Both the position numbers and the translations under genes were made by a program. From positions 12,181,261 through 12,245,260 of the forward strand of contig NC_019866.2 of assembly GCF_002234675.1 (NCBI RefSeq): a stretch of 64,000 bases of DNA, written 5' to 3'. This DNA comes from Oryzias latipes (lineage: Eukaryota > Chordata > Actinopteri > Beloniformes > Adrianichthyidae). Of this stretch, positions 51,301 through 54,300 are shown piece by piece. Position 1 is the first letter of the stretch. Each line of letters starts with the position of its first letter. The notes beneath the pieces are model-generated. The model worked only from the letters and a program-made list of their open reading frames with translations. It did not search any database and was not told where the DNA came from.

Positions 51301-54300
51301 AAAAAAATTGATCTAAAAGAATAAAGTGTGATCTAATTGCAAAAAGGATATGTTTGCAAGTATTTTTTTAATTACTGGTGCTCTTTGATGTCCCAAAGTG
51401 AAGCTCCAGATCCAAATACTTAACCATGTCATGCAGTTTTTCATAGTCAGAGTTTGCACCCAACTGAAAAAAAAAGTTTTCAAATGATAAAAACAAATAA
51501 TTTAGGATTTATAGTTTGGATCTGAGATTTCTGAGATCTAACTCACCTGTCCCCATATAGTCCCTTCTGAGTTTTCCACCTGTTCCCAGCGCAGCCGCTT
51601 CACGCTCATGTGGTTGGAGTCCATCCTGGACAAAGCTGGCCTCGGCAGTGGGGGAGGGGAGCAGGGGGGTGGGAGGGGTGGAGGTGGAGGCGGCTCCAGG
51701 TGCTCTGTAGGATCGGACAGAGAGTATGGCAGAGACTGGAGCTGACTCTGGTGGTGGGGTTGCTTGTGGTGGGTTTGGGGAAGATGGTGGGATTGAAGCA
51801 GGTGATGCGAGGGCTGTGAATGTGGACGAGTTGTTTGGGTGGAGGGCTGGCCGTGGTGCTGGGCTTGTGGGTGTTGGGGCAGGGGCTGGAAGGTGGAAAC
51901 AGTGGGCTGGTGTGGCTGGAGGGGCTGAAAGGTGGAGAGAAGGGGCTGGGGCCTGTGGGGCTGCTGGGGAGGATGGATGACGTGGATCTGGTGTGGGTAG
52001 TCCTGAGGAGGCGGTTGGGGGGTGATGTGGTGAATTTGGTGGATCTGGGGTGTGTTGGAATGGTGGTGGGTTTGCTGGATGGAGTGGGGTCTCTGGGGAG
52101 AGGGCTTGGTCGGCTGGGGGTGATGGATTTGGTGAATCTGCTGCTCTTGGTGTCTGGCCTGCAGAGAAACCTCTGTTTGATGATGTCCTTTTATACTCCT
52201 GCGGCTCTGATGCGACTGGCTGTCCCGGTTCAGTTGAACTGGAAGGGAAGCGGGCTCTTGATGCATTTGATGCAGCAGCTCTGTGGATGAGTGATGGGCC
52301 TTCGACTGCTGAATTTGGTGAGTTTGGTGAAGAAGCTCTGCAGAGGAGTGGTGGGGCTTAGGCTGCTGCATTTGGTTGAGCAGCTCAGTGGATGAATGAT
52401 GGGTTTGACCTCGATGCATCTGGTGAGCTTGATGAAGCAGCTCAGCAGAGGTGTGGTGCGGCGGCGTTTCGTGTCTTTGGTGAGACTGGTGCAGAAGCTC
52501 AGTAGAGGAATGATGGGCTTTGGATTTGTGCATCTGCTGGAGCATCTCAGATGACGAGTAATGGCCGTGGCTCTGCATCTGCTGCAGCATTTCCGAAGAG
52601 GCGTGGTGTGGCGGGGCTTGGTGCATCTGATGAATCATCTCTGTCGAAGAATGATGGGGCTGTGGTCTCACACTTTGATGACTCTGGTAGATGCCCTCAG
52701 CGTACTGACCTTGGCTGGGGTGCATTGCTTGTTGGGGTGATGGCTGATGTGGAGGAGGAGCTGAGCGAGAAAGCCGCCTGTGGTGATGACTCTGCTGCTG
52801 TCCTTGGCCCATCTTATACAGAGGGTGGTTGGCATTTGAGTGCATGGACTCCTGAGAAGGGATTGGGGGTAAAGACTGGTGTAACTGTTGGAGTGGTAGA
52901 GGGGAACTGGATTTATGCTGAGTCAGCTGGACAGGAATGGACTGGTGGCCTTGGTAGATCTGCTGCATCTGTTGCTCCTGGTACGCTCGCTGCTCCTCAT
53001 AAGCTTTCCGTTCCTGGTAGCCTTGTAGTTCCTCAAATGCTTTTTGCTCCTTGTAGGCCTGAAGCTCCTCGTATGCTTTCTGCTCCTGGTAGGCCTGGTG
53101 CTGCTCATATGCTTGTCTCTGCTGGTAGACTTGCTGCTCTTGATACACCTGCTCCTCATAAGCCTGTCGCTCCTTGTAAATCTTCTCCTGGTAAACCTGT
53201 TGTTCCTGGTACGCTTGCTGCTCCTGGAAAAGTTCTTGTTCCTCATAGGCTTGCTGCTCCTCAAATGCTTGTCTCTCCTTGTAGGCTTGCTGCTCCTCAA
53301 ATGCTTGTCTCTCCTTGTAGGCTTGCTGCTCCTCAAATGCTTGTCTCTCCTTATAGGCTTGCTGCTCCTCAAATGCTTGTCTCTCCGTGTAGACTTGCTG
53401 CTCTTCCTGGTAGTTTTGTTGTTCCTGGTAGGCTTTCAGTTCTTGTATGGTGGCATGGACTTGAATATCTTCTCTTGTTGGGAGGACCTTATGCAAGGAG
53501 TGGCGTTTAGGTGGTAGGTTACTGCGAGGAGGCGGCGGTGGAGGAGGGCCAGATTTTCGGCGGATGGGCACATATGCTCTGGGTGAGTGCTCAGGTGTGT
53601 AGCTGACAGGTTGTTGTTGGTTCTGAGGCTGACTCTGAGCAGGTGCTGGAGGGGCGGGGGGAGGGTCGTTGAACTGGACAGGTGGAGGTGGGGGAGGACT
53701 CATGGGTGGAGGAGGGATGTGATCAGAGGAAGAGGAATATGTCAAGGAGGAGGCATTCTCTTCCCCAATACTGCTTTGAACATCACTTGGGCTGCTTAGC
53801 TCCGGAGCCACAAATCCTCCATTTTCTTCCTCATCCACCCCAAGCTCCTCCTCATTATCATCATCATTCTCATCTGGGTAACCCATCTGCACAACATCCT
53901 GACAGTAACAACAAGCACAATTTATTAGACCTTTCATGTGAGACTGGAACTTAAAGAAAAAAAAAGTACTGAATTGAAATAAAAAAGGGCATCATAATAA
54001 GTCATTTCATTGTTAAAAACCTGAACTAACAGGATAAAAAGACAGAAGATGTAATTTCTTTTCATTGTCTTTAGCAAATTTGGGAATCTAACAGACTGTT
54101 GGCAAACTTTTTTGGGGGGGGGGGGTAAATTTGAGGGATTGTAAGACAAAAAAAAATAAGACTCAATTTACTTTGCTGAGTAAATTGGAATTTTGAGAAT
54201 TTTGGATTATGGGTCAAGCAAAGAAAAAATCAAACAGTACTTCATTTGCAAAAGCCATTTGTTACACCAATAGATTAATCATGCTTGTTTTAAAGTTTCC

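What the first reader, a model, noticed from the sequence alone, without database searches (positions are those of the whole stretch)
52950..53440. Six-residue Gln/Glu/Tyr repeat array inserted in a synaptic formin
The grid2ip exon carries about 27 tandem hexapeptides where human delphilin (as remembered) has none. A strict period of six instead of seven is unusual for a coiled coil and recalls trichohyalin- or involucrin-like repeats. The regular Tyr/Phe could drive self-association or be phosphorylated. Near-exact 36-bp DNA units show recent growth, so copy number may differ between individuals.
Basis: partly seen in the sequence, partly recalled or inferred. Interest (0 to 1): 0.75.

Follow-up and report, generated by a model that had tools for sequence, protein, structure and literature searches.

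The report
Helix-forming repeat inside fish synaptic formin
A brain protein that helps build actin filaments at synapses carries, in medaka and many other bony fish, a long run of six-residue repeats that is predicted to form a stiff rod splitting its actin-delivery region, a part that the land-vertebrate versions examined do not have.

Summary
Minus strand 53442-52969 of medaka grid2ip (delphilin, 'a' copy) encodes 26 Tyr/Phe units; 22 of 25 gaps are exactly six residues, against at most 8 in 10,000 shuffles. A 20-exon model equals the record delphilin isoform X2 [Oryzias latipes]. Recent growth holds: near-identical 36-bp copies, and one 12-residue unit more in a second O. latipes record. 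But the array is old: 27 of 33 long fish records examined keep it, smelt with a mixed 6/7 period; four lack it exactly, two have a decayed one. None of 40 tetrapod records has it. AlphaFold2 predicts one 176-residue helix (about 26 nm) with or without an alignment. No hydrophobic power near 3.5-3.6, so a coiled coil is unlikely. Tyr and Phe exchange in 20 of 22 columns, against phosphorylation as the main role. The array splits the proline-rich FH1 region. Best reading: a stiff, length-variable spacer between the synaptic anchor and the actin-building FH2 domain. An 8-copy [10 protein letters not shown] array follows in the same exon. RNA evidence and copy number in individuals are untested.

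The parts
48364..60252 (-). grid2ip 'a' (delphilin) gene, 20 exons of the isoform beginning [11 protein letters not shown] (1707 aa); exons for the first 274 residues of the long Perca form were not found in the window
   Evidence: tblastn; splice-site search and in-frame joining; 100% identity to P0095; FH2 and PDZ by Pfam
51547..53898 (-). single 2352-bp coding exon (784 aa) that holds the FH1 region, both arrays and the start of FH2
52969..53442 (-). hexapeptide array, 158 aa, 26 Tyr/Phe units; consensus over 389 units of 22 records [QK]-A-[YF]-x-E-[QR]
53246..53403 (-). recently grown part: 4.4 copies of a 36-bp unit ([12 protein letters not shown]), 96% match
   Evidence: one unit more in P0096 and fewer in O. 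melastigma P0097
52948..53475 (-). predicted continuous alpha-helix, exon residues 142-317
   Evidence: AlphaFold2
52262..52652 (-). second tandem array, cores of 8 copies of 15-19 aa, HHSS[TA]E[LM]LHQ..., predicted disordered
53494..53733 (-). N-terminal FH1 proline tracts (exon aa 56-135), including [21 protein letters not shown] and [17 protein letters not shown]
51547..51708 (-). C-terminal FH1 proline tract [22 protein letters not shown] and start of FH2 (exon aa 731-784)

Best explanation
In the 'a' copy of teleost delphilin a long insert grew inside the proline-rich FH1 region. In smelt and acanthomorph fish its first part is an array of six-residue units that most likely folds as a single extended alpha-helix, about 26 nm in medaka, with Tyr/Phe spiralling round all sides (shown: array, orthology, prediction; inferred: fold in the cell). 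It works as a stiff spacer: the PDZ domains and the N-terminal proline tracts stay at the postsynaptic anchor, while FH2 with its own nearby proline tract (fed by profilin-actin) sits at the end of the rod plus a disordered His/Gln/Pro tether of about 440 residues (inferred). Tandem duplication of 36-bp units lets rod length change between species (83 to 173 residues in 27 records).
For: AlphaFold2 gives one helix at exon residues 142-317; the ten-residue blocks 141-310 have pLDDT 80-95 and no other block reaches 70, the second array included. The same helix appears without any alignment, mean pLDDT 89.6. Proline plus glycine are 0-1 per array in the 22 of 24 ortholog arrays tabulated. Strong power at period 6 and none at 3.5-3.75, so no hydrophobic stripe for dimerisation. 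The array is kept in 27 of 33 long fish records examined, and a shared off-register stretch (QEKIFKERQ-like) is found in 21 of those 27. pN/pS among 20 older units is 0.25, against neutral simulation means of 0.54-0.82. The part next to FH2 is the best conserved part of the exon, median identity 0.95. For other formins, tracts closest to FH2 support robust polymerisation without the rest (passages of PMC5969902).
Against: No experiment. AlphaFold2 tends to draw long helices for Gln/Glu-rich sequence (recalled) and no negative control of like composition was run. Salt-bridge pairs are not enriched in medaka (18 against 16.4+-3.4 shuffled), only mildly in Sander (27 against 18.8+-3.6) and Scomber (31 against 22.0+-3.8), so stability as a lone helix is uncertain. 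In smelt only 6 of 16 aromatic gaps are six and six are seven; in two pipefish records (P0125, P0126) the array is decayed; length varies twofold. Four records (P0107, P0114, P0116, P0120) lack the array exactly between its borders: splicing, assembly collapse or annotation, unresolved. The array is no better conserved than its linker neighbours (median identity 0.72 against 0.68-0.78) and has more gaps. The neutral simulation never reached the observed pS (0.95; highest simulated mean 0.62), and single runs at low divergence fell to 0.13-0.30.
Confidence: 0.5

Rival explanations
1. Neutral or nearly neutral repeat: an 18/36-bp minisatellite in a part of the protein that tolerates growth, without a function of its own.
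For: Length varies 83-173 aa; identity is no higher than in the neighbouring linkers; two pipefish records have a decayed array; the genome holds other satellite-like repeats whose translation gives hexapeptides such as QAWRRR and RFYRET.
Against: Kept in 27 of 33 long fish records with alignable units and a shared off-register stretch in 21 of 27; pN/pS 0.25 below the means of a neutral simulation that did not, however, reach the observed pS; E at one position in 86% of 389 units.
Confidence: 0.2
2. Aromatic sticker array: Tyr/Phe every six residues, with the His/Gln-rich second array, drives self-association or condensation at the synapse.
For: An aromatic residue is kept while Tyr and Phe exchange (20 of 22 columns mixed); the rest of the exon is predicted disordered.
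Against: The array is predicted helical, not disordered; no assembly data.
Confidence: 0.15
3. Coiled coil: the array pairs in the formin dimer, trichohyalin-like, despite its period of six.
For: Long Q/E/K-rich helix; formins act as FH2 dimers, which would hold two helices side by side (recalled); in smelt six of 16 aromatic gaps are seven.
Against: In medaka no power at 3.5, 3.6, 3.667 or 3.75. A six-residue repeat over two turns (3.0) lies below the lower limit of 3.33 assumed for helical coiled coils, and its authors had not found beta-layers in hexad spacing (passages of PMC4786415); read as 18 residues over five turns the aromatics would lie on three faces (my inference).
Confidence: 0.07
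4. Tyrosine phosphorylation platform.
For: 20 tyrosines in the 158-residue array, followed by patterns such as YQEQ, YKER and YEEQ.
Against: Tyr/Phe mixed in 20 of 22 aromatic columns.
Confidence: 0.05
5. The array is often removed from mature RNA (an intron within the exon), or its absence from some records is assembly collapse or annotation. Not exclusive of the readings above.
For: P0107, P0114, P0116 and P0120 jump in frame from LQ/LQVH/LQVQ to (Q)(M)QQIYQ, although Scomber japonicus P0106, congener of P0114, keeps 25 units, and icefish P0104, a relative of P0120 (recalled), keeps 21; many shorter records bridge the exon at differing points, and the two Perca records share one junction.
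Against: P0095 and 26 other long records keep the array; by a simple matrix none of the 12 best donors of the medaka exon lies at the start of the array; junctions of the short records differ between species.
Confidence: 0.12

Closest known systems
GRID2IP/delphilin formins (tetrapod)
   Same: PDZ, FH1 and FH2 order; SDHIPPPP...QF and [12 protein letters not shown] landmarks of FH1
   Different: FH1 span 86-101 aa in 40 tetrapod records against 712 in medaka; no array
Single alpha-helix (SAH) domains, e.g. in drebrin, an actin-binding brain protein (actin binding recalled)
   Same: Long predicted lone helix; drebrin's SAH bears exposed aromatic residues, called quite unique against the myosin 6 and VIIa SAHs (passages of PMC12203971)
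   Different: E+K+R only 35% of the medaka array (counts); salt-bridge pairs not enriched in medaka; aromatic hexad; 26 aromatics in 158 residues
Pleckstrin-homology formins (PHCF) with interrupted FH1
   Same: Non-proline stretches interrupt the FH1 region in several homologs (passage of PMC5047451)
   Different: Another formin subtype; no hexapeptide array is described in the passages seen
Trichohyalin/involucrin repeats (recalled)
   Same: Gln/Glu-rich short tandem repeats, helix-prone
   Different: No relation found; Pfam lists only FH2 and PDZ families in the protein

Membership tests
GRID2IP/delphilin formin | FH2 domain with upstream PDZ | tested here: met
   Pfam on P0095: FH2 E=7.7e-91, PDZ E=5.7e-12; P0095 is 100% identical to the window model
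GRID2IP/delphilin formin | harmonin-like helical domains | tested here: inconclusive
   PF21219 is precomputed for P0096 and others, but hmmscan of P0095 did not report it; the names of PF21219 and PF23116 were not looked up
teleost grid2ip 'a' paralogue | falls in the 'a' clade, apart from 'b' | tested here: met
   IQ-TREE of 35 of 39 rows, starred branches
heptad/hendecad coiled coil | hydrophobic periodicity of about 3.5-3.67 | tested here: not met
   medaka: power 0.01-0.13, below the 95% shuffle level; the smelt array, with mixed 6/7 gaps, was not tested this way
single alpha-helix (SAH) domain | E/K/R-rich with i+3/i+4 salt bridges | tested here: not met
   medaka 18 pairs against 16.4+-3.4 shuffled; mild excess in Sander (27 against 18.8+-3.6) and Scomber (31 against 22.0+-3.8)
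single alpha-helix (SAH) domain | long monomeric helix in solution | not testable with these tools
   predicted helix only
trichohyalin/involucrin group | N-terminal S100-type domain of fused S100 proteins (recalled; trichohyalin only) | tested here: not met
   Pfam on P0095 lists FH2 and PDZ families only
alpha/beta coiled coil | beta-layers between helices in a trimer | tested here: inconclusive
   one unbroken helix and no strand in the single-chain predictions; a trimer was not modelled

The most novel reading that the evidence does not exclude
A duplicated fish formin evolved a new kind of long single helix, decorated by an aromatic residue at every sixth position and not chiefly stabilised by salt bridges, placed inside FH1 so that it holds the actin-building end at an evolvable distance from the synaptic anchor.
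Probability: 0.3. Interest if true: 0.7.

Novelty: new variant of a known kind. Interest (0 to 1): 0.5.

Why it matters
FH1 is usually treated as a flexible chain that hands profilin-actin to FH2 (passages of PMC5969902 and PMC11773026). A stiff rod in its middle would be a natural test of how FH1 geometry sets actin assembly, in a protein whose loss in mice enhances cerebellar long-term depression (title and start of the abstract of PMC2386150, listing). The paralogue without the array (grid2ip 'b'), and species with short and long arrays, are ready-made comparisons. The aromatic hexad is also a test sequence for what keeps a lone helix stable when salt bridges are few.

Tried and rejected
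Considered and rejected: (1) a chance pattern, excluded by shuffles. (2) A transposon or gene family elsewhere in the genome: DNA of the array matches only itself, by a search that skips simple repeats; a protein search gave 62 matches (150 of 624 candidates scored), the array itself at E=4.5e-71 and the next at 2.5e-10 with 32% identity; of the seven other loci read, L003-L006 and L009 read as translated satellite-like repeats (QAWRRR, RFYRET), while the frames shown for L007 and L008 were not informative. (3) A known domain: no Pfam family in the exon at E<=1; no solved structure of related sequence at E<=1. (4) A heptad coiled coil in medaka.

Led nowhere or dropped: my first aromatic-chain count used too strict a filter and was replaced. 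A script stopped half-way because a pattern missed the two Oryzias records given to it (P0095, P0097); its unit table covers 22 of 24 records. One search was a pointless look-up of a made-up accession. Two papers were not held. No fish DNA apart from this genome was available, so cross-species dN/dS was not done. Of 33 long records tried, 27 gave an array; P0107, P0114, P0116 and P0120 lack it exactly, and P0125 and P0126 (pipefishes) have a decayed one outside my landmarks. Four of 39 rows were skipped before the tree (P0113, P0135, P0002, P0084). Three array-less rows inside the array part of that tree (Oncorhynchus, Hypomesus, Lota) are models with a short FH1 that annotation may have cut, so their state is unknown. 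P0123 is out of frame in its second array.

Full report
What is there. The window is part of a 734,051,031-base genome in 25 contigs. A 20-exon gene on the minus strand, 60252-48364, translates without a stop into 1707 residues that match a record named delphilin isoform X2 [Oryzias latipes] at 100% identity and coverage. So the gene is medaka grid2ip. Exons for the first 274 residues of the long Perca form were not found in the window. The array lies in one 2352-bp exon, 53898-51547 (784 aa).

The array. Between 53442 and 52969 the exon encodes 158 residues with 26 Tyr or Phe. Of the 25 gaps between them 22 are six, two are five and one is seven; 10,000 shuffles of the same residues gave at most eight gaps of six. 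Across 22 of 24 ortholog arrays tabulated (389 units) the unit is Q/K, A (73%), Y/F, any, E (86%), Q/R. Medaka's part 53246-53403 is 4.4 copies of a 36-bp unit at 96% match. A second O. latipes record (P0096) has 28 aromatic units, one 12-residue unit more, and O. melastigma (P0097) has 23.

A second array. In the same exon, cores at 52262-52652, eight copies of 15-19 residues read HHSS[TA]E[LM]LHQ.... By a loose motif count most long acanthomorph records carry several copies, and the long Osmerus record two.

Where it comes from. A search with the exon gave 94 proteins at E<=0.001 (7984 best candidates scored); one with the full model, restricted to the exon region, gave 402, of which the best 120 were listed. 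Of 33 long fish records examined, 27 carry the hexapeptide array: among them medakas, silverside, pikeperch, killifishes, icefish, mackerel, pipefishes, clingfish, handfish, swamp eel and smelt. In smelt (P0124) only 6 of 16 aromatic gaps are six and six are seven, so the strict hexad is a feature of the acanthomorph records (taxon names recalled). Two pipefish records (P0125, P0126) have a decayed array, and four records (P0107, P0114, P0116, P0120) lack exactly the array. A search with the smelt array returned 27 proteins at E<=0.001 (5005 candidates), the query included; all 27 are fish delphilin/grid2ip records already found, one of them named only as a PDZ protein.

Who lacks it. None of the 40 tetrapod records has two or more units; their FH1 span is 86-101 residues. 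The 'a' copies of Denticeps, Electrophorus, Danionella, Xyrauchen (two) and of Scleropages and Arapaima have none; those of Denticeps, Electrophorus and Danionella have a long His/Gln/Pro-rich insert without hexapeptides. The eel and Alosa records seen are 'b' copies by the tree, so their 'a' copies are unknown. No human, gar or shark record was seen. The searches scored only part of the candidates, so absence from a list does not show absence from a genome.

Tree. A 35-row tree (4 of 39 rows skipped) separates 'a' and 'b' copies with supported branches and puts all nine array rows in one part of the 'a' clade, smelt plus acanthomorphs. The label needs two changes, which read literally would be two gains, because the Hypomesus and Lota models in that part lack the array. 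Both models are short in FH1, so annotation may be the cause. I read the shared flanks (KVLPTRED ... IYQ[SG]H[HQ]S) as one gain followed by lineage changes; that is inference.

Selection. Among 20 older units pN/pS is 0.25 (pS 0.95, pN 0.24); neutral star simulations gave mean ratios of 0.54-0.82. They reached a mean pS of at most 0.62, below the observed value, and single runs at low divergence fell to 0.13-0.30. Of 22 alignment columns that are at least 70% aromatic, 20 mix Tyr and Phe, 17 with two or more rows of the rarer residue, so the ring is kept more strictly than the hydroxyl group. Median identity to medaka is 0.72 in the array, 0.84 in the N-terminal FH1 part, 0.68 and 0.78 in the linkers, 0.69 in the second array and 0.95 in the part next to FH2. 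So the array is conserved about as well as its linker neighbours, less than the FH1 tracts, and gaps are commoner in it (median 0.25).

Structure. AlphaFold2 with 24 rows gives one helix at exon residues 142-317; ten-residue blocks from 141 to 310 have pLDDT 80-95 and no other block reaches 70 (overall mean 52.4, pTM 0.31). Alone, without an alignment, residues 6-181 of 190 are one helix, mean pLDDT 89.6. At 0.15 nm per residue (textbook value) 176 residues span about 26 nm. In medaka hydrophobic positions have strong power at period 6 and none at 3.5-3.75, so the side chains spiral round the helix and form no stripe. Opposite-charge pairs are not enriched in medaka and mildly enriched in two relatives, so this is not a typical salt-bridged single alpha-helix. 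Drebrin, a brain protein that binds actin (recalled), has such a helix with unusually many aromatic residues (passages of PMC12203971).

How it may work. The array separates N-terminal proline tracts (exon 56-135) from the tract beside FH2 (exon 731-784). FH2 begins at residue 1314 of P0095; the helix ends near residue 870, leaving about 440 residues of predicted disorder between. In other formins the tracts closest to FH2 suffice for strong polymerisation (passages of PMC5969902), and delphilin's FH1-FH2 is described as inherently weak in processivity (passages of PMC10797183). So the insert need not hamper actin delivery; it would hold the actin-building end away from the PDZ-bound receptor. 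These functional steps are inference.

Doubts. Four records lose exactly the array, in frame, although a congener of one keeps 25 units; many short records bridge the exon at differing points. By a simple matrix none of the 12 best donors in the medaka exon lies at the start of the array. RNA data would settle it. No helix control of like composition was run.

Literature. 'Delphilin' occurs in 61 papers of the library (30 listed), 'grid2ip' with 'zebrafish' in 10 (9 listed), and 'grid2ipa', 'grid2ipb', 'delphilin teleost' or 'delphilin fish' in none. Passages of two formin phylogeny papers (PMC5047451, PMC5628938) mention no such array. I saw listings and passages only, not whole texts.

Noticed in passing
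52262-52652 (minus): Second tandem array of eight HHSS[TA]E[LM]LHQ... units, seen in most long acanthomorph 'a' records; His-rich, with repeated Ser/Thr followed by Glu.
   Followed up: partly
P0127, P0128, P0129, P0130 (otophysan 'a' records): In place of the hexapeptide array these carry two SSSMD[RK]LDR... blocks, the second followed by short repeats such as LERMERIEK: perhaps a separate helix-prone insert in the same region.
   Followed up: partly
exon aa 72-76, window 53685-53671 (minus): A PPxxF motif (PPVQF here) lies in the first FH1 tract in 135 of 146 records with the landmark; it resembles the recalled Homer EVH1 ligand. Binding untested.
   Followed up: partly
P0092 (JGI record, 762 aa): Protein with a capsid/zinc-knuckle look (by eye) carries hexapeptides such as QRRAFEQ/QQAYEKQ, six of eight aromatic gaps being six: probably convergence.
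   Followed up: no
G000 C4, C22, C11 (L003-L006): Dispersed medaka element with a satellite-like repeat reading QAWRRR in an open frame of about 400-800 codons; L003, L004 and L006 share a proline-rich end.
   Followed up: no
P0107, P0114, P0116, P0120: Delphilin records of Seriola, Scomber scombrus, Cyclopterus and Trematomus lack exactly the array, in frame; splicing or assembly collapse not resolved.
   Followed up: partly
P0125, P0126 (pipefishes): The hexapeptide array is decayed: still Gln/Glu/Arg-rich but with few regular aromatics.
   Followed up: partly
3398-4756 (+) and 11416-12285 (+): Two open frames end in the CBX7_C motif (Pfam E=8.3e-11 and 4.2e-14), so two Polycomb CBX genes seem to lie near each other here.
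   Followed up: no
42941-43342 (minus): Stretch of a sodium:solute symporter family gene (Pfam SSF, E=7.2e-16).
   Followed up: no
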